Virus record (IMG/VR): IMGVR_UViG_3300017989_000373 | Span: 1 to 27,536 of that record | Source of the DNA: a virus | Direction: 5' to 3' (one strand) | DNA: 27,536 nt | Shown here: positions 567 to 22,083 of the stretch, piece after piece | Numbering within the stretch: the first letter of the stretch is position 1 | How the letters are laid out: every line of letters begins with the position of its first letter | The notes under the pieces: model-generated | Databases searched by the model: none | What the model saw: only the letters and a program-made list of their open reading frames with translations | What the model was told of the DNA's origin: nothing | Program-made: the position numbers and the translations under genes

Positions 567-580
567 TCAGCTTGGTTTAT

Positions 581-2561: not shown

Positions 2562-2562
2562 T

Positions 2563-7970: not shown

Positions 7971-9113
7971 ATGACGAATAAAGAACGTGAAGATTATTTG
8001 GCTAAAATAGCACAGGTTAAATACGAAGCCTCTATGTACACAAATATGGAACAAGGCGTCAAGCTCATGCTTAACTCTATTTACGGTGCATTTGGTAATC
8101 CTTATTTCTATTTCTTTAATGTTGATATTGCTGAAACAATTACCCTTCAGGGTAAGGATGCTATTCTATACACTGAAAAACTTGTCAATAAATACTTTAA
8201 AGAATTTTGGCATAAAGATATTCCTGCTCATACCGCAATGGGTATATCTGTTACCGGTAAAATTGAAAAGCCCGTAGGTATCTATATTGATACAGATTCG
8301 GTATATGTTAAGTTTGATGAAGTCATTAAAAAAGCCGAAGGTTGGGAAGGTGATGAAAAGGAATTCATTCTTAAGTTATATGAAGTAAGACTTAAGGATT
8401 ATATTGAAAAGATTCTACAGAAATATGCTGATGATAATAATGCAGAGAATTTCTTAAGCTTTGAATTGGAGAGTATTGCTAAAAATGCAATATGGCTTGC
8501 CAAGAAAAAGTATATGCAAAATATTGTATGGAAAGATCCAGGTATTCATTATGATGATCTTTCAAAAATCAGTGCCAAAGGTTTTGAAATTATTCAATCG
8601 TCAACACCTCTTTTTGCTAGAGAAAAACTAAAAGATCTTCTTACATATATCTTTTCTGTTAAAGAATTAGATATGGGTAAATTTGCAAGTCAACTTAAAG
8701 ACATTAAAAGACAGTTCAGATTAGCAAACACTGACCACATTAGTTTCTCTAAGAAGGTTAATAACTATCAACGATATATAGTAAACGATTATGATACATT
8801 TGAAATTGCATCAAAATGTCCAATAGGTGTAAGATCTGCAGGTTATCATAATTACCTATTAAATAACTCCAGTGTGAAAGGGAAATATCAGCCGCTAGGA
8901 AACGGCGAAAAACTAAAAATGTACTTTTCTGTAGATCCATCTTGTGATGTATTTGCATATGCACCTGGTGATTATCCTTATGAATTTGCCCCTAAGGTAG
9001 ATTATGATAAACAATTTGAAAAGACAATATTGGATCCAATAAATCGGGTTGTAACTGCAATGGGATTTAAGGCCTTTAATAGAAATCTAATTTATACAAC
9101 CAATCTTTTCTAA
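7971..9113 (+). CDS. gp43: C-terminal half of family B DNA polymerase (T4 gp43-like)
   Basis: This 380-residue protein starts about 30 residues before motif B (KLMLNSIYGAFGN, fingers). It continues with palm motif C (YIDTDSVYV, catalytic DTD), the FELESIAKNAIWLAKKKYM segment and the thumb, matching roughly the last 40% of T4 gp43 in order. The exonuclease domain and motif A are absent. They are not upstream either, since gp45 and a terminator lie there. The N-terminal half must be encoded elsewhere. The N-terminus (MTNKEREDYLAK) has none of the C-intein motifs, so this is best read as a non-spliced two-subunit polymerase, as in some Aeromonas T4-like phages with 43A/43B. The intact motifs argue against a pseudogene. 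Confidence 0.9.
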   Translation: MTNKEREDYLAKIAQVKYEASMYTNMEQGVKLMLNSIYGAFGNPYFYFFNVDIAETITLQGKDAILYTEKLVNKYFKEFWHKDIPAHTAMGISVTGKIEKPVGIYIDTDSVYVKFDEVIKKAEGWEGDEKEFILKLYEVRLKDYIEKILQKYADDNNAENFLSFELESIAKNAIWLAKKKYMQNIVWKDPGIHYDDLSKISAKGFEIIQSSTPLFAREKLKDLLTYIFSVKELDMGKFASQLKDIKRQFRLANTDHISFSKKVNNYQRYIVNDYDTFEIASKCPIGVRSAGYHNYLLNNSSVKGKYQPLGNGEKLKMYFSVDPSCDVFAYAPGDYPYEFAPKVDYDKQFEKTILDPINRVVTAMGFKAFNRNLIYTTNLF

Positions 9114-9120
9114 CATAAAT

Positions 9121-10275
9121 ATGAAAAAGAGTTTTAGAATTCACGTACTAGGTCTTCCACATACCATAACCAATGAAGACTTTGTAGCATGCGCCTATAC
9201 ACAAAAGGCCTGGAAATTTTGTAAGATGATGGCTGGCAGAGGCCATACAATTTATCATTATGGTCATGAAGATTCTGATACAATGGCAGATGAAGATGTG
9301 ACAGTCATTACTAATGAAGTATGGAAAGAGGTTTACGGTACTCATGATTATAAGAGTAAATGGTTTAAGTATGATATGAATGATAAGGCATATCAGACTT
9401 TTTATAAAAATGCAATTAGAGAAATTGATAAAAGAAAACAACCCGGAGACATTATTCTTCCATTCTGGGGCGCCGGTGTAAGACCGATTTGTGATGCTCA
9501 CCCAGACCTTTTAACAATAGAACCTGGTATCGGATATGCAGGTGGTCATTGGGCACCTTATAAAATATTTGAATCTTATGCAATTTATCATGCATATTGC
9601 GGACTTCATAATGTTGGGACATGTGCGCAAAGTAACTATGATATAGTAATTCCTAATTATTTTGATTTAGACCAATTTGAATATCAAGAAGAAAAAGAAG
9701 ATTACTTTCTTTTCTTAGGAAGAGTTTATACTGGTAAAGGAGTTCATATTGCTCAACAGGTATGTGAAGCTACTGGTGTAAAGCTTAAAGTTGCTGGGCA
9801 ATTAGATCCTTCATATGAAAACTATGAATGGCCAGACCATGTAGAATTTGTAGGGTATGCAGGGGTTGAAGAAAGAAAGGAGTTAATGAAAAATGCAAAA
9901 GGTTCTTTTTTGCCATCACAATATCTTGAACCTTTTGGTGGTGTACAGATTGAAAATCTTTTAGCAGGGACTCCCACTATCTCATCTGATTGGGGAGCCT
10001 TTACTGAAAATAATATCGAAGGCATAACAGGCTACCGCTGTAGAACATTTGAAGACTATGTAAGAGCAGTTAAAAATATACAGGAAGGTAAAATAAAGTC
10101 TGCAGATTGTAGAGCTCATGGTGAAAAGTTTTCATTAGAAGCAATAGCCCCAATGTATGAAGACTTCTTTAGAAAAGTTTCTGATATACATACTGGTCGT
10201 GGATGGTATGAAATATGGGATGAATCATTATATACACCTGAATGGAAAGAAAAACAAAATCGTAAAAATGATTAA
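9121..10275 (+). CDS. Glycosyltransferase family 4-like (GT-B)
   Basis: This 384-residue protein has typical GT4 features in the C-terminal domain. FLFLGRVYTGKGV (197-209) opens the second Rossmann domain. The donor-binding motif LEPFGGVQIENLLAGTP has E270 and E278 spaced as in the EX7E motif. SDWGAFTENN follows. Retaining transfer from an NDP-sugar is expected. The N-terminal acceptor domain carries no recognised feature. It starts 8 bases after the polymerase fragment and overlaps the next glycosyltransferase by 8, so the three may be co-transcribed. The acceptor (phage DNA, host glycan or virion) is unknown. Confidence 0.85.
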   Translation: MKKSFRIHVLGLPHTITNEDFVACAYTQKAWKFCKMMAGRGHTIYHYGHEDSDTMADEDVTVITNEVWKEVYGTHDYKSKWFKYDMNDKAYQTFYKNAIREIDKRKQPGDIILPFWGAGVRPICDAHPDLLTIEPGIGYAGGHWAPYKIFESYAIYHAYCGLHNVGTCAQSNYDIVIPNYFDLDQFEYQEEKEDYFLFLGRVYTGKGVHIAQQVCEATGVKLKVAGQLDPSYENYEWPDHVEFVGYAGVEERKELMKNAKGSFLPSQYLEPFGGVQIENLLAGTPTISSDWGAFTENNIEGITGYRCRTFEDYVRAVKNIQEGKIKSADCRAHGEKFSLEAIAPMYEDFFRKVSDIHTGRGWYEIWDESLYTPEWKEKQNRKND

Positions 10276-11188
10276 AGTTTTATATTTTGGGGATTGCACC
10301 GGTGGTGCAATGGGAATAATCCACCGTGATATTAAATCTATCATTGATGAAAAATACCCAGATATTCGATTTGAGCTAATGGACTGGGCAGAAAAATATA
10401 ATTATGTTTATCTTTTTAATCAAAAAGCTTGGAAGAATTGGGATCTTATTATAGTTGATCCTTACATTGCCAAAGTCCTAGATAGCGGCTGGCTTTTTAA
10501 AGATTTACCCACAGAAGAACAAAATGAACTTAAAGATAAATTTATTCCAGTCTATCATACTGAAGTAGATATACCTGCTGACCATTTTAATCATGGGTGG
10601 TATGAAGGTTGGTTTACTACTCCAATATGTAGCATTAATCCTTATATAGTAAATCAACTTAAATCTAAAGGTGTTGAAAGTTATCTCTTACCTATCGGTG
10701 TAAATAGAAAGAAATTTTATCCATTTAAACAAATTACCCAAATACGGAAGGTTGGGTTTGTAGGATCTTCGCCTAAAGAAGATTGGCAGTCTATTAAGAG
10801 GCCTAATATGTTTCAAGAAATATGTAATAAGGCTGAGGTAGAATCTGTTGTAATTACCAACAGACCTAATGACAAAAGTATGTACCATGATGTGGACATG
10901 ATTATTTGTACATCAACAGCTGAAGGACTACCTACATACTTTGCTGAAGCTACTGCATGTAAAATACCTTTTATTTCAACTGATGTAGGAATCGTTAGGT
11001 ATCATAATACTGTCAAGAAGTTTAAAACTGTTGATGAAGCTGTTCAAATTATCAATGAATTTAAAGATAACCCAATACTTATTAATGAATATGCATCTAA
11101 TGTTTATGATGAAATGTTCCCTGATAGAGACTGGGAATCCATCATAGAAAAGTATTGGGTACCTTATTTTAAAGAAATGAGTAATTAA
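10268..11188 (+). CDS. Putative GT-B glycosyltransferase
   Basis: This 306-residue protein begins MIKVLYFGDCTGGAMG, the first strand and glycine turn of a GT-B Rossmann domain. The C-terminal half has KVGFVGSSPKEDW, then ICTSTAEGLPTYFAEATACKIPFISTDVG, which is the E-G-x-P-x-x-x-x-E-A-x-A-x-x-x-P pattern of GT4-type donor sites. The frame is open back to 10157, but the ATG at 10268 overlaps the previous stop by 8 bases and places the first strand at the N-terminus, so it is preferred. It probably works with the GT4-like protein upstream. Donor and acceptor are not known. Confidence 0.75.
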   Translation: MIKVLYFGDCTGGAMGIIHRDIKSIIDEKYPDIRFELMDWAEKYNYVYLFNQKAWKNWDLIIVDPYIAKVLDSGWLFKDLPTEEQNELKDKFIPVYHTEVDIPADHFNHGWYEGWFTTPICSINPYIVNQLKSKGVESYLLPIGVNRKKFYPFKQITQIRKVGFVGSSPKEDWQSIKRPNMFQEICNKAEVESVVITNRPNDKSMYHDVDMIICTSTAEGLPTYFAEATACKIPFISTDVGIVRYHNTVKKFKTVDEAVQIINEFKDNPILINEYASNVYDEMFPDRDWESIIEKYWVPYFKEMSN

Positions 11189-11232: not shown

Positions 11233-12183
11233 ATGGGTAAAGAATTTTCATTCGCAGATTTAAACAAGGAAATGTCAAAACACTCTACATACGGAGAGAC
11301 ATTAGATAAATCAAGCATTTCAGAAATTGATCACTTTATACCTACTGGAAATTACCACCTTAATGCATGTTTAACAGGATCCTTATTTGGAGGTTATCCT
11401 AATAACAGAGCAGTTGCATTGGCTGGTCCTTCTGGTACAGGTAAAACTTATCTTATTCTTAATGCTGTTAAACAAGCACAGGAAATGGGATATAGTATTG
11501 TATTCTATGATTCTGAAAATGCAGTAGATAAAAAATTAGTTGAAAAATTTGGAATAGATCCTAAAAAATTCCGTTATGAACCTTGTAATACGGTTCAAGA
11601 ATTCAGAAGTTCTGTTACCGCATTAACTGATCTTTTAATTGAACAAAAGAATAAGGGTGCTGAATTACCTAAAGTTTTGATTGTATTAGATTCTGCAGGT
11701 AACCTTGCAACACAAAAAGAAATTGATGATGCCAAGAGTGGTAGTGATAAGGCTGATATGACACGAGCTAAATTGCTTAAATCTACGTTCCGTATCCTTA
11801 TGACTAAATTAGGTATTGTAAAGGTACCTTTCTTATTTACAAATCATACATACCAGACACAAGACCTATTTTCTCGCCAGGTAGGAGGAGGTGGTTGTTT
11901 AGCACCAGGTTCATTGGTATTAATGGCCGATGGAACTTATAAGGAAATTGAGAATATAGTAGAAGGTGATAAAGTAAGAACATTAATGGGTGATAAAGAT
12001 ATCGAACAAACATGGGAGTTTGATAAACCTACTTACAAGGTAGAGTTTAAAGATGGTTCTGAATTGGTATGCTCTGAAGATCACCGATTCTTTATTGGAG
12101 ATTCTACCGATGATCCGTTAGATGATGACAATTGGGTATATGCAAAAGACCTAGTCGAGGGAGATACTGTATCAAAAGTTTAA
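11233..12183 (+). CDS. uvsX: UvsX recombinase N-terminal part fused to N-intein
   Basis: The protein has 316 residues. Residues 1-221 are the N-terminal part of a RecA/UvsX strand-exchange protein. Walker A is GPSGTGKT (65-72), the Walker B strand is KVLIVLDSAGN, and LFTNHTYQTQ is followed by the GGGG of the ssDNA-binding L2 loop. At Cys222 the reading changes to an N-intein of 95 residues with block A (CLAPGSLVLMADG) and block B (GSELVCSEDHRFF). The frame stops at 12183 with no endonuclease or C-intein. The partner is 13195-13848. After trans-splicing the mature UvsX would be 221 + 177 = 398 residues (T4 UvsX has 391). It has its own promoter-like element. Without splicing the ATPase core lacks the rest of L2 and the C-terminal domain. 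Confidence 0.93.
   Translation: MGKEFSFADLNKEMSKHSTYGETLDKSSISEIDHFIPTGNYHLNACLTGSLFGGYPNNRAVALAGPSGTGKTYLILNAVKQAQEMGYSIVFYDSENAVDKKLVEKFGIDPKKFRYEPCNTVQEFRSSVTALTDLLIEQKNKGAELPKVLIVLDSAGNLATQKEIDDAKSGSDKADMTRAKLLKSTFRILMTKLGIVKVPFLFTNHTYQTQDLFSRQVGGGGCLAPGSLVLMADGTYKEIENIVEGDKVRTLMGDKDIEQTWEFDKPTYKVEFKDGSELVCSEDHRFFIGDSTDDPLDDDNWVYAKDLVEGDTVSKV
11896..12180 (+). other. Split N-intein of UvsX (95 residues, classical split site)
   Basis: It begins with the nucleophile Cys (TGT at 11896) right after the run of Gly codons in UvsX. Both splicing blocks A and B are in this fragment, so the split lies at the usual endonuclease insertion position, after block B. The +1 extein residue supplied by the partner is Thr. 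Confidence 0.92.
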
Positions 12184-12190
12184 AATTAGT

Positions 12191-12219
12191 TGTGGTGGTT
12201 AATAGGTTTTCCCGCCACA
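12191..12219 (+). other. Stem-loop between UvsX N-intein and endonuclease gene
   Basis: TGTGGTGG (12191-12198) pairs with CCGCCACA (12212-12219), giving 8 bp with one T-G pair and a 13-base loop. No T run follows; instead the TCTAAATA element begins at once. It could be a weak terminator, an mRNA 3' end stabiliser or a block to read-through translation of the endonuclease. Confidence 0.5.
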
Positions 12220-12240
12220 TCTAAATATATAAAATAAAAA
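12220..12240 (+). promoter_or_regulatory. Late-promoter-like element of the uvsX-locus endonuclease
   Basis: TCTAAATA (12220-12227) matches the T4 late -10 TATAAATA at 7 of 8 positions. The 20 bases 12221-12240 (CTAAATATATAAAATAAAAA) occur again, identical, at 19004-19023 before the gene-46 endonuclease. Confidence 0.5.
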
Positions 12241-12242
12241 CC

Positions 12243-13247
12243 ATGAGAAGTTCGCCTAAAGCATATACTAATTTAAAAACTGATTTTAATAAATTTAAAG
12301 AATTACTAATTGAACACTTCCCTGCATTTAATATCTCAAACACTGATTATTTGAATACTGTGTATTCTTATATATGTGGTATAAAAATTAAAGGGAAGGT
12401 ATCTTTTATAAGAGAATGTAGTAAATTTTTTAAATTGCAACGAAACGGAAAGGGCGGTTCAAGAACATCTAAAGATTACTGGGTATCAATTGGGTGGTCT
12501 GAAGATGAAGCAATAAAAAAAGTATCTGAGCTACAATCGGCTAGATCAATTTTAACTGTGGGATATTGGACAAACCGAGGTTATAGCGAAAGTGAGGCGA
12601 AGAAGATGGTTGCCGAAAGACAGTCATATAATTCAAAGAAAAGATATGAAAAGTATACCGCAGATGAAATCTCAAGTCAATCAGTATGGAGTAAGTCTTA
12701 TTGGATGGCAAAAGGATATACCGAGGAAGAGGCAGAATATGAAATTGCTAAAAGAAATTATGGAAAGAGAGAATTTTGGAACTCGGATAAAGAGTATGCT
12801 GAGATTAAAAAAATCATAGGTAAGAAAACCTCTAACTTTATAAAGAATAATCCAGAAAAATATAAATCCTTTTTTGGAAGTGTTTCTAAAGAAGAGACTG
12901 TATTTTTTGAAGACTTGTGTAGCAGTATTCCTGGTGTTAATCATAAGCCATTCATTGTTAATGTTAAAGCAAGTGAGTCACTAAACCAAGGGATAGTAAA
13001 ATACGATGGTTACTTAAAGACTGATGGGGGGATAATATTAATTGAATATGATGGCTTATACTGGCATAACCAATCATATGATGAAATAAAAGATACGGTA
13101 ACACTTGATATTAGAAATAATATTTTAGGTATAATAAGAGTTTCTTGTGAACACTATAAAACAAAACCTATAAAAACAATAAAAATAATAAATCATGCAA
13201 TTAAAGAAATTAAAAGTAAAAAAAGTAACAGAGTTAAAATCTACTAA
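12243..13247 (+). CDS. Free-standing Vsr/EDxHD-type homing endonuclease in the uvsX intein locus
   Basis: This 334-residue protein has three copies of a YWxxxGYxxxEAxxxVxxxQ repeat (about residues 79-98, 108-127 and 153-171), probably DNA-binding. A C-terminal nuclease core follows with D255 in KYDGY, then LIEYDGLYWHNQ (E268, D270, H275), resembling the DG.FWH core of Vsr mismatch endonucleases. Endonucleases of this Vsr-like (EDxHD) family are known between halves of split inteins in phage and metagenomic sequences, where they cut intein-free alleles and spread the locus. The 3' end overlaps the C-intein gene by 53 bases in another frame. It is more divergent than the other two endonucleases of this window. 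The catalytic assignment is by eye. Confidence 0.85.
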   Translation: MRSSPKAYTNLKTDFNKFKELLIEHFPAFNISNTDYLNTVYSYICGIKIKGKVSFIRECSKFFKLQRNGKGGSRTSKDYWVSIGWSEDEAIKKVSELQSARSILTVGYWTNRGYSESEAKKMVAERQSYNSKKRYEKYTADEISSQSVWSKSYWMAKGYTEEEAEYEIAKRNYGKREFWNSDKEYAEIKKIIGKKTSNFIKNNPEKYKSFFGSVSKEETVFFEDLCSSIPGVNHKPFIVNVKASESLNQGIVKYDGYLKTDGGIILIEYDGLYWHNQSYDEIKDTVTLDIRNNILGIIRVSCEHYKTKPIKTIKIINHAIKEIKSKKSNRVKIY

Positions 13248-13314
13248 GGTTCACGATTTAACTGTTGTTGATGCACAACACTATATAACCGACAACGGTG
13301 TTATTAATCATAAT
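13195..13314 (+). other. Split C-intein of UvsX (40 residues)
   Basis: It encodes Met1 to the terminal Asn40 of the C-intein (…DNGVINHN), followed by Thr as +1 nucleophile at 13315. The length fits classical split C-inteins of about 35-40 residues that carry only blocks F and G. Confidence 0.92.
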
Positions 13315-13848
13315 ACAGGCCCAGAGTATGCTGCTTCTATTATTCTTTTCTTAGGTAAGGCAAAACTCAAAGAAGGTATTGAACAGACGGGTATTATTGT
13401 AACTGCAAAACCTAATAAGAATCGTTTTGCTAAACCTATACCAATTAAATTCCACATTTCATTTAACAAAGGTATGAATCCTTATATTGGATTAGAAGAG
13501 TATATCAGCTGGGATACTTGTGGTGTTGAACGTGGAAGGTTTATTAATAAAAATGCATACAATAAACTTAACGAGGCAGGTAAAGCAGAATGCCGAGAAC
13601 ATACATATGAAAAAGATGGTAAAGAAGTAACTGTTTATTTCCAACCTGCAGCAACTGCTCGTAAGATCTGTGTAGCTCACCTTAATAAGACTGTTGATCT
13701 TAATCAATTATTTACACCATTGGTTATGACACCAGAAGTTTTACAAAAACTTGAACCGGTAGTTGCCGAGAAGTTTAAATATGGTGAAGAAGTTGATGTA
13801 GAGAATTTAACTGAAATGCTTGAAGGAAATGCTGAAGAAAACGATTGA
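13195..13848 (+). CDS. uvsX: C-intein fused to UvsX C-terminal part
   Basis: The protein has 217 residues. Residues 1-40 are a C-intein: block F VHDLTVVDAQHYITDNG and block G ending VINHN. UvsX resumes at Thr41 (TGPEYAASIILFLGK), the sequence that should follow the L2 glycine run, and extends 177 residues to the C-terminal domain. The start is fixed by the single Met of the C-intein and follows an A-rich stretch, although it lies inside the 3' end of the endonuclease gene. Trans-splicing with 11233-12183 ligates Gly221 to Thr. The acidic C-terminus (ENLTEMLEGNAEEND) is usual for RecA-type proteins. It overlaps the next small gene by 29 bases. Confidence 0.93.
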   Translation: MQLKKLKVKKVTELKSTKVHDLTVVDAQHYITDNGVINHNTGPEYAASIILFLGKAKLKEGIEQTGIIVTAKPNKNRFAKPIPIKFHISFNKGMNPYIGLEEYISWDTCGVERGRFINKNAYNKLNEAGKAECREHTYEKDGKEVTVYFQPAATARKICVAHLNKTVDLNQLFTPLVMTPEVLQKLEPVVAEKFKYGEEVDVENLTEMLEGNAEEND

Positions 13849-14128
13849 TACTGCTAAACTTAAAGTTAAGCACGTATTAGGAAATCATACAGCATTATCA
13901 ACATACCCTGATTCTGAAGATGTTATTTTTGAATTAATACGTGATTACTGTGGTAAGGTAGCAAAAGAGATAAAGTTTACTAATGTATCTTTGCAGAAAA
14001 AGTATAACCTAACCGATGAAAGAACAAATGAAATAATCATGAGTCTTAGGAGAGATAAGATTATTGATATATCACTTTCCAATGCTGCCTATACTACATA
14101 CGAGGTTATTAAGAATCCGTATGAATAA
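13820..14128 (+). CDS. Small protein of unknown function, possible winged-helix
   Basis: This 102-residue protein overlaps the uvsX stop by 29 bases. A second ATG three codons in (13829) is also possible. I do not recognise a family. The C-terminal half (SLQKKYNLTDERTNEIIMSLRRDKIIDI followed by a strand-rich end) has the spacing of a helix-turn-helix and wing: a short helix, a turn at NLTDER, a recognition-like helix, then beta. A DNA-binding or regulatory role is therefore conceivable but only inferred. Coding is supported by the intact frame and the operon position between uvsX and gene 41. Confidence 0.6.
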   Translation: MKEMLKKTIDTAKLKVKHVLGNHTALSTYPDSEDVIFELIRDYCGKVAKEIKFTNVSLQKKYNLTDERTNEIIMSLRRDKIIDISLSNAAYTTYEVIKNPYE

Positions 14129-14146
14129 ACTAAATATAGTTTCCAC

Positions 14147-14161
14147 TATATAAAAATAAAC
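14147..14161 (+). promoter_or_regulatory. Promoter-like element before gene 41
   Basis: TATATAAAAATAAAC lies 5 bases before the gene-41 ATG at 14166 and is a variant of the TATATAATAATAAA element. Just upstream, AAACTA/TAGTTT (14127-14142) forms a 6-bp hairpin with loop AATA and contains a CTAAATA string. The spacing is very short if the element is a -10 box, so initiation could be nearly leaderless or the element may instead be the A-rich leader. Confidence 0.35.
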
Positions 14162-14165
14162 AAAG

Positions 14166-14858
14166 ATGAAATCAAGTACAGATCACGAAAAAATATTCTT
14201 TAACTATTTTCTTAAGAAACCGCATTATCTAAAAAGCACAGGCCCAGGTTTCTTTTCTAACAGTGATCTGGATCATATTGCAAAATTAGCCAAGAATTTT
14301 TATACTAACTTTGGCGAAAGCCCTTCACGAGAACAAATGAAGGCTTTGGTTAAAGATGATCCTAATGAAATTCCTGATGATATTGTAACGAGTATTTATG
14401 ACATTAACATTAATGAATATGATCAGGATTGGTTAAAGAGAACCGGTGAGTCTTGGGTTAAATGGAAACATTTTGATAAACAGTTGGTAAGAACTATTGA
14501 GTATGTAAAAACTCAAGATGTTACACCAGAAAATGTTGAAGATGTAGTAACTCGTGCAATTGGTATGATCTCTACAGAAGGATCATTAAACTTTGATACT
14601 GATATTGGATTAGACTTCTTCAATCCCGAGCACCACATACAGAGAACATCCAAGAAGATTGAAACAGGTTGGACTTTCGTAGATAATGTTTCAGGTGGCG
14701 GTTATGATACAAAATCTCTTATTGTATATGCCGGTGAACAAAATATTGGTAAGTGTGCTCATTATGATACCTTAATTAATATTAGAAACAAGAAAACTGG
14801 AAAAATCCAAAGTATTAAAGTTGGTGACTTTTTTAATCTTATTAAAGAAAATTCTTAA
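14166..14858 (+). CDS. gp41: Replicative helicase gp41 N-terminal part fused to short N-intein
   Basis: The protein has 230 residues. Residues 1-196 are the helicase N-terminal domain and the start of the RecA-type ATPase domain (TGWTFVDNVSGGGYDTKS, then VYAGEQNIGK). Walker A is cut directly after its Lys. Cys197 opens a 34-residue N-intein containing only block A (CAHYDTLINI … KVGDFF). The frame stops there. T4 gp41 is the 5'-3' hexameric helicase of the replisome, DnaB family. The N-part alone has an incomplete P-loop and cannot bind ATP. The partner is 16033-17142. The mature product would be 196 + 231 = 427 residues (T4 gp41 has 475). Confidence 0.92.
   Translation: MKSSTDHEKIFFNYFLKKPHYLKSTGPGFFSNSDLDHIAKLAKNFYTNFGESPSREQMKALVKDDPNEIPDDIVTSIYDININEYDQDWLKRTGESWVKWKHFDKQLVRTIEYVKTQDVTPENVEDVVTRAIGMISTEGSLNFDTDIGLDFFNPEHHIQRTSKKIETGWTFVDNVSGGGYDTKSLIVYAGEQNIGKCAHYDTLINIRNKKTGKIQSIKVGDFFNLIKENS
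14754..14855 (+). other. Atypical short N-intein of gp41 (34 residues, block A only)
   Basis: It begins with Cys (TGT at 14754) right after the Walker A Lys. Block B is not here; it is in the partner (GGKSLKCADDHILF). The split therefore falls between blocks A and B, the rare arrangement known for AceL-TerL-type inteins. Confidence 0.88.
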
Positions 14859-14910
14859 GTTCCTATGTTTTGTTCACCTAAGAAGAATAAATAAAATAAA
14901 ACATGGAAAC
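14859..14910 (+). promoter_or_regulatory. Hairpin hiding an endonuclease start codon, with late-promoter-like loop
   Basis: The left arm (14859-14871, GTTCCTATGTTTT) pairs with the right arm (14898-14910, AAAACATGGAAAC) in a 13-bp stem with one C-A mismatch and one T-G pair. The endonuclease ATG (14903-14905) is in the right arm. The 26-base loop holds AATAAATA (14886-14893), 7 of 8 to the T4 late -10. A transcript from upstream would fold and hide the start. One that begins in the loop would lack the left arm. Confidence 0.65.
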
Positions 14911-16033
14911 CTGCAAAATATGCAATAAAGAATTTAAGTCACGAAAGTCTTTACAAATGCATTTAAGAAAGACTCATGAATTTTCAGATATTCAACTTAA
15001 AGAATATTATGATTCTTATTTAAAGTCCGATGCTGAAGGTAAAGATCCTTTCACCGGTAATAAAACTAATTTTATAGGATTTACAAAGGGATATTCAATG
15101 TTTGATGGTAGTGAAGAATCTAATAAGAAAAAGATTGCATCATCAACAGTTGAATATTGGGTTAAGGTAAAAGGTTACTCTGAGGCAGAAGCAATTAAGT
15201 ATCTTAAAGATAAACATGAGAGATCAACTAAAAATGCAAATGAAACTAAAAAGAAGCTTATGGATGAAAACCCAGAGCGCAGATTTTTAGGTGGATACGG
15301 TAAAAGAAAATGGGAATTGATGGGATATTCTCCAGAAGAGGCGCAAAGAAAATATGAAGAGATAAGGGATACAAGAGAGCCAAAATTAAAAGAGAGTTTA
15401 TCTAAAGTAGATTGGTCAGGTAAAAGAAAGGGGCAGATTGAATATTGGTTAAATAAAGGGTATACTAGGGAAGAGGCTAAAGTTAAAGTTAAAGAATCAC
15501 AATCAACCTTTACCTTAGAGAAATGTATTAAAAAATACGGTAAAGAAAAAGGTACCAAAATCTTTAGAGAAAGACAAATACAATGGTCCACGTTAATTGA
15601 AGAAAAATATCAGAATGGAGAATTTACTAGATTCTGTAAAAATAATTGGTCAAAAACAGAAGAAGATTTTATTAAAGAGTTGGTAAAAAGTTTAGAATTA
15701 AAAGAATCTGAATATAATTCATCTGTTAATGGAAAACAGTTCTTTAGAAATTTTAAAGAAGTAGGAAAGACCCTTGCATATGATTTTAGATATAAGAAAA
15801 AGATTATAGAATTTAATGGTGACTATTGGCACTGTAATCCTGCTCTTTATGAAGCAGATTATTTTAACAAATCTTTACAATGTACCGCAAAAGAAAAATG
15901 GGAATTTGATGAATGGAAAATCTCACTAGTAGAAAATGAAGGTTACCAAGTTCTTACTGTTTGGGAAAGTGATTGGAATGAGAATCCTAAACAAACCGTA
16001 CAAAAATGCATAAAATTTATAAATAAAGATTAA
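14903..16033 (+). CDS. Free-standing Vsr/EDxHD-type homing endonuclease in the gene 41 intein locus
   Basis: This 376-residue protein starts with a C2H2 zinc finger (C4, C7, H20, H25). Copies of the YW..GYS..EA repeat follow at about 85-105, 137-155 (degenerate) and 181-200, then a TFTLEKCIKKYG segment. The C-terminal nuclease core has D294 (AYDF), E303 and H310 (KIIEFNGDYWHCNP) and ends with a VLTVWESDW strand. The core resembles Vsr endonucleases. It is closely similar to the gene-46 endonuclease (19033-20160), with the core residues at identical positions. The last codon overlaps the C-intein ATG by one base. Its start codon is within a stem. It should cut intein-less gene 41 alleles; the target is inferred, not shown. 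Confidence 0.88.
   Translation: METCKICNKEFKSRKSLQMHLRKTHEFSDIQLKEYYDSYLKSDAEGKDPFTGNKTNFIGFTKGYSMFDGSEESNKKKIASSTVEYWVKVKGYSEAEAIKYLKDKHERSTKNANETKKKLMDENPERRFLGGYGKRKWELMGYSPEEAQRKYEEIRDTREPKLKESLSKVDWSGKRKGQIEYWLNKGYTREEAKVKVKESQSTFTLEKCIKKYGKEKGTKIFRERQIQWSTLIEEKYQNGEFTRFCKNNWSKTEEDFIKELVKSLELKESEYNSSVNGKQFFRNFKEVGKTLAYDFRYKKKIIEFNGDYWHCNPALYEADYFNKSLQCTAKEKWEFDEWKISLVENEGYQVLTVWESDWNENPKQTVQKCIKFINKD
15980..16025 (+). repeat. Endonuclease 3'-end repeat, copy 1
   Basis: These 46 bases match 20110-20155 at 41 positions without gaps, including the identical string ATGCATAAAATTTATAAATA. Identity at synonymous sites points to recent common origin of the two endonuclease genes. Confidence 0.85.
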
Positions 16034-16446
16034 TGGAATTAACATTAGACAATCTTACTGATCTTAAACATATTGATTTAAGCCAAGGTATTAAAAGAAA
16101 ATTTGAAGAAACTTTTAATGTATCTGACTGGGAAGTTGAAACTGATTTAGGTTGGTCTCCCATTAAAAGGATAGGAAAAACTATTCCATATGAAGTATGG
16201 GAAGTTAAGACAAGTGGCGGTAAATCTCTTAAGTGTGCAGATGATCATATTCTTTTTGATGATACATATGATCAAATTTTTGCCAAGAATTTAAATAAAG
16301 ATACTAGACCTGATAAAATTATTACAAAGGATGGAGCAGAATTAGTAGAGTATTCAAAGCCGTTGGGGTATACAGAGAATATGTTTGATTTAGAAGTAGA
16401 TGATACAAATCATAGATATTTTACAAATGATATACTTTCCCATAAT
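16033..16446 (+). other. Atypical long C-intein of gp41 (138 residues, blocks B, F, G)
   Basis: It ends SHN, and the +1 residue is Ser (TCT at 16447). At 138 residues it is far longer than a classical C-intein because it carries most of the HINT fold. Confidence 0.88.
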
Positions 16447-17142
16447 TCTATTTGGTTGGCCAATGATGCTGCTAACTTCGTTAGAATGGGTCATAATGTA
16501 GTATTCATTTCGGCTGAGATGTCTGCACAAAAGGTACTTAAAAGGATAGGTTCTAATCTGTTAGATATTTCCATGATGGAATATGATAATAAAACAGGCA
16601 ATCGTGAATTTATGAAAAGGAAATTGGAAAGAATCTCTAGAGGATTACTTCCACCAGGAAAACTCTTCGTAAAAGAATTTCCAACATCTCAAGGTACTGT
16701 TCTTGATATTGAATCCTATCTTAAAGACTTAGAAGAAAGCCAAGATCATAAAGTAAATGTTTTGGTGGTTGACTATATTAATATTCTTGCAAATTATAGA
16801 AATCCTAATACTGAAAATACTTATATGAAGATTAAGCAAATTGCCGAAGATCTTCGCGCTCTTGCTGTTAAGAGAGATATGTTAGTAATTTCAGCAACGC
16901 AGATTAACCGTGGTGCATGGGATGCAACTGAAGTAAGAATGGAAAACATTGCAGAATCTGCAGGTCTTGCGCATACCGCCGATGTTATGTATGCATTGAT
17001 TCAAGATTCAATGATGCACGCAAATAGAGAATATTGGTTAAAGGTACTGAAGATTAGAGATGGGCAAGGGAAAGGGTCAAGATGTAGATTTAATATCGAT
17101 TATGATCATATGAGATTAACCGAAACCGATGACATAAATTAA
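16033..17142 (+). CDS. gp41: Long C-intein fused to gp41 helicase C-terminal part
   Basis: The protein has 369 residues. Residues 1-138 form a long C-intein with block B (GGKSLKCADDHILF, about 62-75), block F (NMFDLEVDDTNHRYFTNDI) and block G (ILSHN). gp41 resumes at Ser139 (SIWLANDAANFVRMGHNVVFISAE), restoring Walker A as GEQNIGK-S. Walker B is VNVLVVDYINI, followed by EDLRALAVKRDMLVISATQIN and IAESAGLAHTADVMYAL, characteristic of T4-type DnaB helicases. It is the trans-splicing partner of 14166-14858. The start codon overlaps the endonuclease stop (TAATG), so it may be translationally coupled to it. Confidence 0.93.
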   Translation: MELTLDNLTDLKHIDLSQGIKRKFEETFNVSDWEVETDLGWSPIKRIGKTIPYEVWEVKTSGGKSLKCADDHILFDDTYDQIFAKNLNKDTRPDKIITKDGAELVEYSKPLGYTENMFDLEVDDTNHRYFTNDILSHNSIWLANDAANFVRMGHNVVFISAEMSAQKVLKRIGSNLLDISMMEYDNKTGNREFMKRKLERISRGLLPPGKLFVKEFPTSQGTVLDIESYLKDLEESQDHKVNVLVVDYINILANYRNPNTENTYMKIKQIAEDLRALAVKRDMLVISATQINRGAWDATEVRMENIAESAGLAHTADVMYALIQDSMMHANREYWLKVLKIRDGQGKGSRCRFNIDYDHMRLTETDDIN

Positions 17143-17149
17143 ACACAAT

Positions 17150-17647
17150 ATGTGGGGAAAAAAGAAAAAACCAAAATTAGATGAAAATGGCAAAGAAATA
17201 AAGCCATCATTAGCAGATAAAGACAAGATCTTTAACAACACTTACGGTGAACAAGATATAACCGAAAATCATGTAAACTTTACAGTTTCTTCTACTTACC
17301 TGGATGATACGGATCCAGATGATAAGATGCATTATGAACAATTAATTAAAAAGATTGATGCCTTAATTAAAGGTAGTGAATATGAGCATCTCAATGAAGC
17401 CACCCCTGATGGTGTTATTAAGAAACTAAATAAAGTACAAATCAATAAAGTATATACTTATGTAATTGAACATATTGGTGACTATTATACAAGAGTAGAT
17501 TTATTTAGTGTTATATCAGATTACTTTGATGTATTTCCTAACAAATTTTATAACTCTCTTTCTAATAAATTTAAAGATGAACTTATTAAAGAATTAGATG
17601 ATAAGTATAATATCCTAGAGAAAAGAAAAATACGAAAACTATTTTAA
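17150..17647 (+). CDS. Conserved-looking protein of unknown function between genes 41 and 47
   Basis: This 165-residue protein has a Lys-rich start (MWGKKKKPKLDENGKE), an acidic middle (TYLDDTDPDDKMHYEQ) and a helical C-terminal half ending in basic EKRKIRKLF. I recognise no domain. It lies 7 bases after gene 41 and 1 base before gene 47, so it is part of the same operon and probably serves replication or recombination. A role beside the helicase (loader or mediator, as T4 gp59 or UvsY) is a guess from position only. I see no sequence similarity that supports it. Confidence 0.7.
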   Translation: MWGKKKKPKLDENGKEIKPSLADKDKIFNNTYGEQDITENHVNFTVSSTYLDDTDPDDKMHYEQLIKKIDALIKGSEYEHLNEATPDGVIKKLNKVQINKVYTYVIEHIGDYYTRVDLFSVISDYFDVFPNKFYNSLSNKFKDELIKELDDKYNILEKRKIRKLF

Positions 17648-17648
17648 C

Positions 17649-18734
17649 ATGGCAAGAATTTTTATGATTAGTGATTCTCACCTTGGGTGTAGATCAAATT
17701 CAGTTTTATGGCTTAACATCATTGAAGATTACTTCTTTAACTTTTTCATACCATTAGTTAAAAAGGAATACAAAGAAGGGGATGTCCTCTATCATTTAGG
17801 GGATGTGTTTGATAATCGCCAAAGTATTAACTTGGCTGCGCAAGATTTAGGAATTAGAGTTTTTGAAGAATTAGGAAAGATATTTCCAGACATTCATATC
17901 ATTGTAGGTAATCATGATATAATGAGAAAGAACTCCAATGATATTGCATCAGTAGACTGCCTTAAGTATATTCCTAATGTTACAGTTCATAAAGAACCTA
18001 AGATCTTACAGTATGGAGATACTAAATGTTTACTTATGCCATGGCGAAGAGATCATAAACATGAAAAAGAAACATTAGATTCTATTACAGAAAATATTGA
18101 CTATATGTTTTGTCATACTGAAACGCGCGGTGTTCAAACGAGTCCTAGTACAAAATATTTACACGAAGGTGGTAATGATGTTTCAACCTTTAAGAGATTT
18201 AAGAGAGTTTATTCAGGTCATATTCATTATAGGCAAGATAAACAGAATTTTGTACTTGTAGGAAATCCTTACCAGATGACAAGATCTGATCGCGATAATC
18301 AAAAAGGTATCTATCTATTGGATTTAGATACTGGAAAGCACCAGTTCTTTATGAACAAGAGGAGTCCAGTATTTATACGGTATTATATTAATGATATCTT
18401 AGAGATGAGAATGGAGGATATAAAGAGAGAAATAAAGGATAATTTTGTGGATGTGTTTGTGCCATCAAATATCTTAGGTAAGTATAATATTAATAGATTC
18501 ATGGATTACCTAGATGGTGTTGCCAGAAAATTAGAACCAAGAATTTACGATGAAGATAACCCATATGATAGAGAAGATGGGGAAATGTCAGATTTTAATG
18601 GAGAATTGAATTTAATGAATATTGCCGCAGAGTATATCAATTCATTAGATTATGAACAGGATTTAAAGGAAAGACTAAAACAGTCGGTCCAAGAACTATA
18701 TAAAACAACACTATCACCTAACTATGAAGATTAA
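17649..18734 (+). CDS. gp47: Recombination nuclease subunit gp47 (SbcD/Mre11-like)
   Basis: This 361-residue protein has the ordered metallophosphoesterase motifs: ISDSHLG (D9, H11), LGDVFDNR (50-57), GNHD (87-90), CH at 155-156 and SGHIH (189-193). With gp46 it forms the Mre11/Rad50-type complex that resects DNA ends for recombination-dependent replication. The length is near T4 gp47 (339). The C-terminal third lacks further motifs and should contain the gp46-binding region. It starts one base after the upstream gene. The gene-46 N-part follows at 18783 after a 48-base gap, keeping the T4 order 47-46. Confidence 0.94.
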   Translation: MARIFMISDSHLGCRSNSVLWLNIIEDYFFNFFIPLVKKEYKEGDVLYHLGDVFDNRQSINLAAQDLGIRVFEELGKIFPDIHIIVGNHDIMRKNSNDIASVDCLKYIPNVTVHKEPKILQYGDTKCLLMPWRRDHKHEKETLDSITENIDYMFCHTETRGVQTSPSTKYLHEGGNDVSTFKRFKRVYSGHIHYRQDKQNFVLVGNPYQMTRSDRDNQKGIYLLDLDTGKHQFFMNKRSPVFIRYYINDILEMRMEDIKREIKDNFVDVFVPSNILGKYNINRFMDYLDGVARKLEPRIYDEDNPYDREDGEMSDFNGELNLMNIAAEYINSLDYEQDLKERLKQSVQELYKTTLSPNYED

Positions 18735-18782
18735 CAAATGCTATGTATAGATGGCATTTCAATAATTGTAATAAAAAATAAC

Positions 18783-19007
18783 ATGAAAATAAATCGCGTA
18801 GAGTTTAAGAATTTTGCAAGTTACGGTAACCGAAAGCAAGTAATAGAATTTGACAAAAATAAAAGTGACCTATACTTGGTATTAGGTGGAAATGGTGCAG
18901 GTAAATGTCTCGCAAAAGAAACTAAGATCTCGGTTGAAATTGAAGATGAGAAATTAAAAGAAGAATTCAAGGAATTCTTAAAAACAAGAAAATCCGTTAC
19001 GCCCTAA
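18783..19007 (+). CDS. gp46: gp46 (Rad50/SbcC-like) N-terminal part fused to short N-intein
   Basis: The protein has 74 residues. Residues 1-41 (MKINRVEFKNFASYGNRKQV … LVLGGNGAGK) are the first strands of a Rad50-type ATPase ending exactly at the Walker A Lys. Cys42 starts a 33-residue N-intein (CLAKETKISVEIEDEK…), and the frame stops at 19007. An earlier ATG at 18738 is in frame, but gp46 proteins begin at the MKI…NRVEFKNF strand, so 18783 is preferred; it also follows an A-rich leader. The partner is 20164-22083. This is a very small gene fragment, easily missed in automatic annotation. The mature protein would be 41 + 515 = 556 residues (T4 gp46 has 560). Confidence 0.92.
   Translation: MKINRVEFKNFASYGNRKQVIEFDKNKSDLYLVLGGNGAGKCLAKETKISVEIEDEKLKEEFKEFLKTRKSVTP
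18906..19004 (+). other. Atypical short N-intein of gp46 (33 residues)
   Basis: Cys (TGT at 18906) follows the Walker A Lys. The fragment has block A character (CLAKETKISVEI) and ends before any block B, which is in the partner (GEEIICSPDHLFF). Confidence 0.87.
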
Positions 19008-19038
19008 ATATATAAAATAAAAATAGGACGTAATGGAT
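18992..19038 (+). promoter_or_regulatory. Hairpin hiding the gene-46 endonuclease start codon, with late-promoter-like loop
   Basis: The left arm (18992-19005, ATCCGTTACGCCCT) pairs with the right arm (19025-19038, AGGACGTAATGGAT): 14 positions with one G-T pair and one C-A mismatch. The stem contains the endonuclease ATG (19033-19035). The 19-base AT-only loop plus the end of the left arm contains CCTAAATATATAAAA, like a T4 late -10. The left arm also carries the last codons of the N-intein. Confidence 0.7.
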
Positions 19039-20160
19039 AAAATTGATATTATTAAGAATAGGATAGATAAAAGTTCAACTAATAAAGCTTTAATTCATTT
19101 TAAAGATCATGTATTAGAGAAAGTATATGAAAATATTTCAGTAGATGATGCATTGACTTATTCATTGACTAAATTAATTGGTATTAAAAATTCTTATATA
19201 AAGAATATTACTACAAAACAGTTGCGTGTATATTCTTTAGATTATTATTTAATACGAGGATGGGATATCAATGATGCAAAAGATAGAATATCTAAATTAC
19301 AAAGAAATAATTCATTAAAATTTGCTAAAAAGAGAAAGTCTAATCCAGAACTATATAGTCACATGAAGAGTCCAATGACTCTTGAATTTTGGTTAGATAA
19401 GGGGTTTTCAGAATCTGAGGCAAATGATATTATTCAATCACAACGGCCAAGTTCGATTAAATACTGGCTAAATAAAGGATATTCTGAAACGGATGCAAAA
19501 AAATTAGCAACAGATCACCAAAAAAATGCTGGTCTGTCTTTTTCTAAAAAATATAAAGAAAATACTAAAAAATATGAAGGATTTTCTAATACACAATTAA
19601 AATATTGGTTAAACAAAGGTTATAGTAAAGAAGAAGCTAAGGAAAAATTAAAAGAAAGACAGTCTACATTTACATTAGAAAAATGTATTAAAAAATACGG
19701 TGAAAAGGAAGGCACTCATGTCTTTAACGAAAGACAAGAAATGTGGAAAAAATCTTTACAAGAAAATTTTGAAAGAGAAGGTGACGGTCGTAGCCCATCA
19801 AGTAAATTTGCAAATTCTATTATTAGAGAACTTTGTGATTACTTAAACATAGAAATTCCACAAAAAGAAAAATGGATTAAAAATAAAGAAACTGGAAAAG
19901 CATACTCATATGATTTTACTTACAATGGAAAGATCATAGAATTTAACGGTGACTATTGGCATTGTAATCCAGAGATTTATGAGGTAAATTATTTTAATAA
20001 AAATAAAGAAATGACTGCTAAAGAAATTTGGGAGTATGATAAAGAAAAAATTAAAACTGCAGAAAAGTATGATTACCAGGTCCTAACTATATGGGAATCT
20101 GAGTGGGTAGAGAATCCTAAACAAATAATAGATAAATGCATAAAATTTATAAATAATTGA
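19033..20160 (+). CDS. Free-standing Vsr/EDxHD-type homing endonuclease in the gene 46 intein locus
   Basis: This 375-residue protein has four copies of the YWLNKGYSxxEA repeat (about 71-90, 119-137, 144-163 and 191-210), then TFTLEKCIKKYG. The nuclease core has D294 (SYDFTY), E303 and H310 (KIIEFNGDYWHCNP), followed by YDYQVLTIWESEW. Sequence and core positions match the gene-41 endonuclease, which however has an N-terminal zinc finger that this one lacks. The start codon is inside a 14-bp stem. The stop is 3 bases before the C-intein gene. The expected role is homing of the fractured locus into intact gene 46 alleles; cut site and activity are not visible here. Confidence 0.88.
   Translation: MDKIDIIKNRIDKSSTNKALIHFKDHVLEKVYENISVDDALTYSLTKLIGIKNSYIKNITTKQLRVYSLDYYLIRGWDINDAKDRISKLQRNNSLKFAKKRKSNPELYSHMKSPMTLEFWLDKGFSESEANDIIQSQRPSSIKYWLNKGYSETDAKKLATDHQKNAGLSFSKKYKENTKKYEGFSNTQLKYWLNKGYSKEEAKEKLKERQSTFTLEKCIKKYGEKEGTHVFNERQEMWKKSLQENFEREGDGRSPSSKFANSIIRELCDYLNIEIPQKEKWIKNKETGKAYSYDFTYNGKIIEFNGDYWHCNPEIYEVNYFNKNKEMTAKEIWEYDKEKIKTAEKYDYQVLTIWESEWVENPKQIIDKCIKFINN
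20110..20155 (+). repeat. Endonuclease 3'-end repeat, copy 2
   Basis: These 46 bases are the ungapped partner of 15980-16025 with five mismatches, in the last codons of the gene-46 endonuclease. Confidence 0.85.
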
Positions 20161-20163
20161 ATT

Positions 20164-20535
20164 ATGATAGAATGCACTTTAGAAGATTTATATGAATTTA
20201 ATAAATTAAATAAATCCGTAGATAGTGGTAAATTCAAAACTAATACTAGAAAAGGACTCAAAAATATAAATGGAATTGGTGTCACTGCTAAAAATAGCAT
20301 ACAGCATAAATTAATATTAGATTCTGGCGAAGAAATTATATGCTCACCAGATCATCTTTTCTTTGCAAACGATTGGAAAAAGGCAAAACATTTTAAGATT
20401 GGTGATATTATAGAAACAGAAAAAGGATTGTCATATATTTCTAGTAATTCGATCTTAAAAGAAAGATCTGATTTGTACGACATAGAAGTAGATGAAGTAC
20501 ATGAATTTTATGCTAACGGTATTGTTTCTCATAAT
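20164..20535 (+). other. Atypical long C-intein of gp46 (124 residues, blocks B, F, G)
   Basis: It ends SHN with Ser as +1 (AGT at 20536). Like the gp41 C-intein it carries block B, so nearly the whole HINT fold sits on this half. Confidence 0.88.
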
Positions 20536-22083
20536 AGTACTTTAGCAAAAGTGATAACCTATCTTTGTTATGGTAAAGTAGAAGGTGCTAATCTTAAAGA
20601 CTTGCCTAACAGAGTAAACGGGGAGCTTTGGGGTAAAATCTGGTTAGAGTCAAAAAATAATTCTATTGAGATTGAAAGAGGTATTAATCCTGGGGTATTT
20701 AATGTAAAGATTAATGGTTCCGATTATGATGTTGCAGGTAAATCAAATCTTCAAGACTTTTTAGAAACTGAAATTTTTGAAATCCCTTATCATGTATTTA
20801 AGAATGTAATTATTCTATCGGTTAATGACTTTAAGTCTTTTATTACAATGTCCCCTTATGATAAGAAAAGAATCATTGATAAGATCTTTGGTTTTTCAAT
20901 TATTAATGAAATGGCAGAAGCTGTTAAAGAAAAGAGGAGGATCATAATTGAGGAAATCAGAACTTATGAAGATGAAATCCGAACACTTAATGATTCAATA
21001 GATTCTGTTTTAGAAAAGATTGAACATTTTGAAAAGATAAGTAAAGATAAGGATGCCGAAAAGGTTAAAGGTCTTAAAGAAAATCTAGTTACTCTAAACA
21101 GCCAAAGAAAAAAGTTATTGGAGATAGCACAATCAACTAAAGAAAAACTAGAAGAATTAGATACACATTCTCGCAAAAAGAATAATGAAAAATCAAATCT
21201 TAATTCTAAGATCAATACAGTAAAGAAAGAACTTAAGCTTTATGAAAATAATACATGCCCAACATGTACAGCCCCTCTTAATTCAGATTTTCATTTAGAT
21301 ATTAAAAAGGAAAAGGAAGAAAAATTAGATTCCTTATTTTCCCAATGGAATGGCATTAAAGCAGAAGCTGAAAAGGCTGAAGCCGATCTCACGGCCCTTC
21401 GCCAAAAAGGAAGAAAGATCCATGTAAAGGTTGGTCAGTTAGAAACCCAAATGGAATCTATTAAAGATAAGCTAATTGAACTTGCTGATAAGGATGAGTC
21501 TGAATCGTCTTCTCACCTAAAACAACTGGTAAAAGAATTTACTGATAAAAAATCAGATAAAAATGAAGGTAAGTTAAAGAGTGAAGGTGAAGATTATTAT
21601 TTGACTATCTTAGAAAATATTATGGGAGAAGATGGAATTAAGAATTTGGCTGTAAGATCTATTCTTCCATCATTTAATAATAATATCCTGTTAATGGGAA
21701 GGGAAATGGGAATTCCATTTGGTATTAGATTTAATGAAAAGTTTCACTGTTCTCTCCACCATCTAGGTACAGAAATCAGCCCTAAGACTTTAAGTACAGG
21801 TGAAAGAAAGAAAGTTGACTTTGTAATTATTATGGCTTTAATAAAAATGATAAAAGTTAGATTCCCATCTCTTAACATTCTATTCTTGGATGAAATCTTT
21901 TCTTCTATTGACAGTGACGGTGTACACCATATCATAAACATACTTCATAATACTATTCAAGATATAGGATTAAATACATTCGTGATTAACCATACTGTTT
22001 TACCTAGTGAATACTTTGATAAGAAAATTGAAATTACGAAAGATGCAGGCTTTAGCGAATTTAACATTGAATCTATTGGATAA
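20164..22083 (+). CDS. gp46: Long C-intein fused to gp46 (Rad50/SbcC-like) C-terminal part
   Basis: The protein has 639 residues. Residues 1-124 are a C-intein with block B (GEEIICSPDHLFF, about 55-67), block F (LYDIEVDEVHEFYANG) and block G (IVSHN). gp46 resumes at Ser125 (STLAKVITYLCYGK), completing Walker A as GGNGAGK-S. The body then has a Q-loop region (FKNVIILSVNDFKSF), a first coiled coil, a zinc hook (CPTC in NTCPTCTAPL), a second coiled coil, the ABC signature LSTGERKKVDF and Walker B LNILFLDEIFSSID. It is the partner of 18783-19007 by trans-splicing and works with gp47 on DNA ends. Its C-terminal end is complete. Confidence 0.94.
   Translation: MIECTLEDLYEFNKLNKSVDSGKFKTNTRKGLKNINGIGVTAKNSIQHKLILDSGEEIICSPDHLFFANDWKKAKHFKIGDIIETEKGLSYISSNSILKERSDLYDIEVDEVHEFYANGIVSHNSTLAKVITYLCYGKVEGANLKDLPNRVNGELWGKIWLESKNNSIEIERGINPGVFNVKINGSDYDVAGKSNLQDFLETEIFEIPYHVFKNVIILSVNDFKSFITMSPYDKKRIIDKIFGFSIINEMAEAVKEKRRIIIEEIRTYEDEIRTLNDSIDSVLEKIEHFEKISKDKDAEKVKGLKENLVTLNSQRKKLLEIAQSTKEKLEELDTHSRKKNNEKSNLNSKINTVKKELKLYENNTCPTCTAPLNSDFHLDIKKEKEEKLDSLFSQWNGIKAEAEKAEADLTALRQKGRKIHVKVGQLETQMESIKDKLIELADKDESESSSHLKQLVKEFTDKKSDKNEGKLKSEGEDYYLTILENIMGEDGIKNLAVRSILPSFNNNILLMGREMGIPFGIRFNEKFHCSLHHLGTEISPKTLSTGERKKVDFVIIMALIKMIKVRFPSLNILFLDEIFSSIDSDGVHHIINILHNTIQDIGLNTFVINHTVLPSEYFDKKIEITKDAGFSEFNIESIG

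What the first reader, a model, noticed from the sequence alone, without database searches (positions are those of the whole stretch)
11233..22083. Three fractured replication/recombination genes joined by split inteins in one 11-kb block
Seen: uvsX, gene 41 and gene 46 are each in two ORFs. In every case the first ends in an N-intein starting with Cys, the second begins with a C-intein ending in HN followed by Thr or Ser, and a separate Vsr-like endonuclease ORF lies between. The extein parts add up to near-T4 lengths (398, 427 and 556 residues). Known: such 'fractured genes' with split inteins and a new endonuclease family were described from marine metagenomes. Inference: this phage needs three separate protein trans-splicing reactions to build its recombinase, helicase and Rad50-like subunit, so splicing may act as a control point over replication.
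Basis: partly seen in the sequence, partly recalled or inferred. Interest (0 to 1): 0.92.

Follow-up and report, generated by a model that had tools for sequence, protein, structure and literature searches.

The report
Three phage genes stitched by inteins
In this virus of bacteria, three essential DNA-copying and repair genes are each cut in two by a selfish element, so the virus can probably make those enzymes only if the protein halves find each other and splice; this arrangement is known, but relatives found here carry up to seven such breaks and one gene in three pieces.

Summary
uvsX, gene 41 and gene 46 are each split into an N-extein+N-intein ORF, a separate endonuclease ORF and a C-intein+C-extein ORF. 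Viruses 94-96% identical in the flanks carry all three genes intact, with insertions of 1,419, 1,693 and 1,630 bp missing exactly at the predicted splice points. A second contig, 99.8% identical, repeats two of the insertions, so assembly error is unlikely. The endonucleases belong to the Vsr-like/EDxHD homing family: the predicted fold is closest to I-Bth0305I, then Vsr. uvsX is split conventionally (95+40 residues). Genes 41 and 46 carry atypically split inteins (34+138, 33+124) between Lys and Ser of the Walker A loop, so ATPase function should need ligation. This is the 'fractured gene' arrangement of Dassa et al. 2009, also seen in isolated T4-like phages. The 'control point' idea is not supported: over 90% of close relatives lack each insertion. 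The wider picture is more interesting. One related contig (94 kb) has seven fractured genes and another (70 kb) six, uvsX occurs in three pieces, many split inteins persist without an endonuclease between the halves, and nucleases appear to have moved between sites. Splicing is inferred, not shown.

The parts
11233..11895 (+). UvsX N-extein (221 aa, ends QVGGGG)
   Evidence: PHROG UvsX-like E 6.6e-51; exact empty site in L006-L008
11896..12183 (+). uvsX N-intein, 95 aa, Cys1, block B CSEDHRF, acidic (net -14), plus stop
12243..13247 (+). free-standing Vsr-like homing endonuclease of the uvsX site (334 aa)
   Evidence: in a uvsX-site-only clade with support 100
13195..13314 (+). uvsX C-intein, 40 aa, basic (net +3), ends INHN; overlaps the endonuclease end by 53 bp
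13315..13848 (+). UvsX C-extein (177 aa, starts TGPEYA)
14166..14753 (+). gp41 helicase N-extein (196 aa, ends Walker A GEQNIGK)
14754..14858 (+). gp41 N-intein, short atypical type (34 aa), Cys1, plus stop
14903..16033 (+). Vsr-like homing endonuclease of the gp41 site (376 aa, N-terminal C2H2-like zinc finger)
16033..16446 (+). gp41 C-intein (138 aa, block B CADDH, block F, ends LSHN)
   Evidence: best solved-structure hit VidaL intein E 2.2e-5
16447..17142 (+). gp41 helicase C-extein (231 aa, starts SIWLAND)
18783..18905 (+). gp46 (SbcC/Rad50-like) N-extein (41 aa from inner Met; 56 aa from ATG at 18738), ends GGNGAGK
18906..19007 (+). gp46 N-intein, short atypical type (33 aa), Cys1, plus stop
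19033..20160 (+). Vsr-like homing endonuclease of the gp46 site (375 aa); catalytic domain about residues 257-375
   Evidence: AF2 model pLDDT 86, nearest solved folds I-Bth0305I and Vsr; conserved D294, E303, G306, H310
20164..20535 (+). gp46 C-intein (124 aa, block B SPDH, ends VSHN)
   Evidence: modelled homologue L073:13382-13882 folds as an intein, top hit VidaL
20536..22083 (+). gp46 C-extein (515 aa, starts STLAKV)

Best explanation
Three independent selfish elements, each a split intein with a free-standing Vsr-like (EDxHD-type) homing endonuclease gene between its halves, have invaded uvsX, 41 and 46 of a T4-like phage. The two halves of each host protein are translated from separate ORFs of one gene block. 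The intein halves associate, splice in trans and ligate the exteins (C1 attack, then +1 Thr/Ser, then Asn cyclisation), leaving a full-length recombinase, helicase and SbcC/Rad50-like protein. The endonuclease presumably cuts intein-free copies in co-infecting phages, and repair copies the whole cassette in. Shown here: anatomy, exact empty sites, catalytic residues, conservation across divergent carriers, nuclease fold and clustering by target site. Inferred: splicing, cleavage and homing.
For: Precise empty sites between codons in three relatives at all three genes. A second contig with 41 and 46 insertions, 99.77% identical over 13,391 bp. Complete intein signature residues in window and carriers. 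Intein fold of the gp46-site homologue, top hit VidaL E 1.2e-7. Endonuclease fold nearest I-Bth0305I then Vsr. Endonucleases cluster by target site, 11 label changes against 29.6 shuffled; C-inteins likewise, 9 against 34.3. No second copy of the genes in the window or in the 69.9- and 94-kb carriers. Synonymous far exceeds nonsynonymous divergence in inteins, nuclease and exteins. Splits between Lys and Ser of Walker A leave neither half with a complete P-loop. A phage split intein of the same arrangement (Aes123 PolB1, PMC11923092) splices in vitro.
Against: No splicing or cleavage experiment. The window is a 27.5-kb fragment, so an intact copy elsewhere in this genome cannot be excluded. 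dS is near saturation, so purifying selection is only roughly shown. Foldseek E-values for the endonuclease are weak (0.067 and 0.42), although its probability for I-Bth0305I is 0.99.
Confidence: 0.88

Rival explanations
1. Splicing is a deliberate control point: the phage keeps its recombinase, helicase and gp46 in inactive halves and uses trans-splicing to time replication.
For: All three targets are replication/recombination enzymes in one block; the split state is kept in carriers that lost the nuclease, such as L005.
Against: Sporadic: gp41 site 4/79, gp46 6/79, uvsX 4/71 relatives; viruses 94-96% identical in the flanks lack all three; targets are simply conserved essential sites, the usual preference of homing elements.
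Confidence: 0.07
2. The halves are not spliced and work as two-subunit enzymes, as reported for the Aeh1 ribonucleotide reductase; the inteins are relics.
For: Genes-in-pieces are known in phages; the polymerase in this window is itself only a gp43B-like half without an intein.
Against: Intein active-site residues conserved in all carriers; the uvsX C-intein is more conserved than its extein (dN 0.054 against 0.220); the P-loop is cut between K and S in 41 and 46.
Confidence: 0.04
3. Assembly or annotation artefact.
For: Metagenomic contig.
Against: The 41 and 46 insertions recur in a second contig from another IMG dataset (L130); precise empty sites for all three; same arrangement in divergent contigs and isolated phages.
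Confidence: 0.01

Closest known systems
'Fractured genes' (Dassa et al. 2009, NAR 37:2560; cited through PMC6892783 and PMC10448857, the paper itself is not held)
   Same: Gene split by a split intein with a free-standing endonuclease gene between the halves; aquatic metagenomes; phage replication enzymes among the targets (from memory).
   Different: Three in one contig; two at the Walker A loop with short N-inteins. Whether these exact sites were in the 2009 list could not be checked.
Aeromonas phage Aes123 PolB1 split intein with VSR endonuclease (JN377899)
   Same: Isolated T4-like phage, N-intein / VSR endonuclease / C-intein order; intein shown to splice in trans (PMC11923092).
   Different: Different gene (polB), Ser1 cysteine-less intein, one fractured gene known from that short record.
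Yersinia phage TG1 uvsX (KP202158)
   Same: uvsX split at the same GGG|TG site by an N-intein and C-intein in separate ORFs.
   Different: A GIY-YIG endonuclease, not a Vsr-like one, lies between; annotated only as two RecA-like proteins.
VidaL, an atypically split viral intein (PDB 6VGV)
   Same: Closest solved intein to the gp41 C-intein by profile and to the gp46-site intein by fold.
   Different: Low sequence identity (18% in the fold alignment).
I-Bth0305I (EDxHD homing endonuclease, PDB 3R3P)
   Same: Closest solved fold to the catalytic domain; multi-domain layout with repeated N-terminal modules that may bind DNA.
   Different: About 20% identity; from memory, I-Bth0305I is not encoded between intein halves.

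Membership tests
Split inteins (class 1) | N- and C-terminal splicing blocks on separate ORFs, Cys1, block B His, C-terminal His-Asn, +1 Ser/Thr/Cys | tested here: met
Split inteins (class 1) | Excision leaves a full-length host protein; empty homologues lack exactly the insert | tested here: met
Split inteins (class 1) | HINT horseshoe fold | tested here: met
   gp46-site homologue from L073 modelled, pLDDT 72, 45 hits at E below 1e-3, nearly all inteins or HINT domains; uvsX and gp41 inteins not modelled
Split inteins (class 1) | Protein trans-splicing activity | not testable with these tools
   needs co-expression
Atypically split inteins (gp41 and gp46 sites) | Short N-intein (15-25 aa per PMC11923092) with a long C-intein | tested here: met
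   34+138 and 33+124; N-part slightly longer than the quoted range
Fractured genes | Free-standing endonuclease gene between the intein halves | tested here: met
   three of three sites; nuclease family found upstream of C-inteins at about 60 other distinct places
EDxHD / Vsr-like homing endonucleases | Vsr-like catalytic fold with conserved acidic and His residues | tested here: met
   Foldseek I-Bth0305I prob 0.99, Vsr prob 0.82, with weak E-values; D294, E303, G306, H310 over 90% conserved in 39 proteins; sequence profile alone found no PDB hit
EDxHD / Vsr-like homing endonucleases | Cuts the intein-free allele and promotes homing | not testable with these tools
   only the site-clustered tree and closely related empty alleles support it

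The most novel reading that the evidence does not exclude
A lineage of aquatic T4-like phages, probably infecting Bacteroidota, has had its replication core repeatedly fractured. Individual genomes need 3 to 7 mutually orthogonal protein trans-splicing reactions, including a UvsX assembled from three polypeptides with a 13-residue middle extein. The split state outlives the endonuclease and can apparently re-fuse into a contiguous intein, so trans-splicing has become a stable mode of gene expression rather than a transient parasite stage.
Probability: 0.5. Interest if true: 0.75.

Novelty: new member of a known kind. Interest (0 to 1): 0.55.

Why it matters
It gives three sequence-complete fractured genes with matched empty sites in closely related viruses, which makes homing directly testable. 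It also shows that stacked fracturing (up to seven genes) and three-piece genes occur in nature. The co-resident intein pairs should be mutually orthogonal, so they are a natural source of orthogonal ligation tools. The widespread short-N inteins at the Walker A loops of gp41, gp46, terminase and clamp-loader-like genes suggest one mobile family specialised on P-loop coding DNA.

Tried and rejected
Control-point role: rejected as the main reading because insertions are sporadic. Assembly error: rejected. Group I/II intron: Rfam finds no RNA family in the window. Clear co-conversion footprint beside the insertions: only a weak rise in divergence next to the uvsX and gp41 sites, not convincing. 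Bacterial genome relatives of the gp46 C-fragment: none. Sequence profile of the endonucleases against the PDB: no hit, so the fold was predicted instead. SD-like ribosome sites before the nine ORFs: essentially none. Dassa et al. 2009 could not be read in the library, so whether these exact sites were listed there is unknown.

Full report
WHAT IS THERE. The window is a 27,536-bp linear virus record of a T4-like phage: clamp-like gene, C-terminal polymerase half, uvsX, 41, 47-like, 46, gp55-like late sigma factor, head closure protein and portal protein. Splitting at the intein borders gives exteins of 398, 427 and 571 residues. The last becomes 556 when the start used by relatives (18783) is taken. 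Intact relatives in L007 are 398, 427 and 556 residues.

THE INSERTIONS ARE PRECISE. Contigs L006, L007 and L008 are 94-96% identical to the window around the block and carry uvsX, 41 and 46 uninterrupted. The inserts of 1,419, 1,693 and 1,630 bp are missing exactly between the codons at the predicted splice points. Contig L130 (the L004 contig, another IMG dataset) has the 41 and 46 insertions and is 99.77% identical over 13,391 bp. Among 80 relatives found by the gp41 C-fragment, the gp41 site is occupied in 4 of 79, gp46 in 6 of 79, and uvsX (sites b/c) in 4 of 71 informative loci. All four gp41 carriers also carry the gp46 insertion, so occupancy is clumped, though these are only about three independent lineages.

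TWO KINDS OF SPLIT INTEIN. The uvsX intein is split at the common endonuclease position (95+40 residues, acidic N-part, basic C-part). The 41 and 46 inteins have short N-parts (34 and 33 residues) and long C-parts (138 and 124) and sit between Lys and Ser of the Walker A motif (GEQNIGK|S, GGNGAGK|S). Neither half then holds a complete P-loop, so ligation should be needed for ATPase activity (inference). Signature residues are kept in divergent carriers. The gp41 C-intein profile hits the VidaL split intein best (E 2.2e-5). A predicted structure of the contiguous gp46-site homologue from L073 (pLDDT 72) matches VidaL (E 1.2e-7) and many other inteins. The window's gp41 and gp46 C-inteins are only 28% identical, which fits but does not prove orthogonality.

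THE ENDONUCLEASES. An AlphaFold model of the gp46-site protein, built on 39 homologues, is confident (pLDDT 86). Its C-terminal domain is closest to I-Bth0305I (probability 0.99, E 0.067), then Vsr (0.82, E 0.42). These are weak E-values but the two expected families. D294, E303, G306 and H310 are over 90% conserved. A tree of 56 endonucleases groups them by target site (11 changes against 29.6 for shuffled labels, 0 of 200 as low), as expected for site-specific homing. C-inteins do the same (9 against 34.3). One clear discordance: in the 70-kb contig the terminase intein groups with terminase inteins, but its endonuclease groups with gp46-site endonucleases (52% identical to the window's). 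This suggests nucleases move between P-loop sites.

BEYOND THE WINDOW. A C-intein profile over the fetched loci found 112 distinct C-inteins, roughly 100 of split type and at least 8 contiguous (L137 proved contiguous on inspection); the sample is biased because loci were fetched by intein sequence. Contig 3300036715_002448 (94 kb) has seven split: polB, uvsX (Walker A), 41, 46, terminase, a gp52-like topoisomerase subunit and a KxDG ligase-like gene (the last two gene names are my reading of motifs). Contig 3300036670_000250 (70 kb) has six: polB, uvsX twice, 41, 46, terminase. There uvsX is in three pieces and the middle ORF carries a 13-residue extein, TQDLFSKQVGGGG, between a C-intein and an N-intein. 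A second three-piece uvsX, at a partly different pair of sites, is in L077. Some 27 split-type inteins had no large ORF directly upstream of the C-part (this count includes L137), so many remain split without an adjacent nuclease. At the gp46 site L073 is contiguous but nested among split relatives, suggesting re-fusion; L137, also contiguous on another branch, makes the direction less certain. Neither long carrier has a second copy of these genes.

KNOWN OR NEW. The arrangement is that of 'fractured genes' (Dassa et al. 2009; I could not read the paper). Isolated T4-like phages show it too: Aes123 polB with a VSR endonuclease, whose intein splices in vitro (PMC11923092), and Yersinia phage TG1 uvsX at the same site with a GIY-YIG nuclease. 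Caulobacter phage Cr30 carries a related nuclease beside an intact terminase gene. I found no open paper on uvsX inteins or natural three-piece phage genes, but the library is partial. The window's three loci are therefore new members of a known kind; the stacking is the less familiar part.

HOW IT WORKS. Most likely three selfish elements spread by homing, with the phage paying by needing three trans-splicing reactions. Shown: anatomy, empty sites, conservation, folds, site clustering. Inferred: splicing, cutting, homing. A regulatory role is possible but unsupported, since close relatives lack the insertions.

Noticed in passing
window 7971-9113: The polymerase ORF is only the C-terminal (gp43B-like) half of a B-family polymerase with an uninterrupted YIDTDS motif; the N-half is not in the window. 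Relatives L005, L072 and L077 have a split intein at YIDTD|S, while L073 has a contiguous one there.
   Followed up: partly
L005:6356-8807: uvsX in three ORFs joined by two split inteins, middle extein only 13 residues; endonuclease lost except a remnant at 7992-8132.
   Followed up: yes
L072, L118, L119, L120 (one 94-kb contig): Seven split inteins in one incomplete phage contig, including a gp52-like topoisomerase subunit and a KxDG ligase-like gene.
   Followed up: partly
L073:13262-15427, L234:5136-6785, L137:4757-6898: Contiguous mini-inteins at sites that are split in relatives (gp46, uvsX, gp46).
   Followed up: partly
L239:3599-4621 (Caulobacter phage Cr30): A relative of these endonucleases sits directly upstream of an intact, intein-free terminase large subunit gene: nuclease without intein.
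   Followed up: partly
window starts of all nine ORFs; L073:5854-6417: Starts have A/T-rich leaders with almost no Shine-Dalgarno motif, and relative L073 encodes a CHU_C type IX secretion domain (Pfam E 8.8e-15): both point to Bacteroidota hosts.
   Followed up: partly
window 572-6102 and 9121-11188: Block of HAD hydrolase, nucleotidyltransferase, NAD-epimerase, cytosine methyltransferase and glycosyltransferase genes beside the replication block.
   Followed up: no
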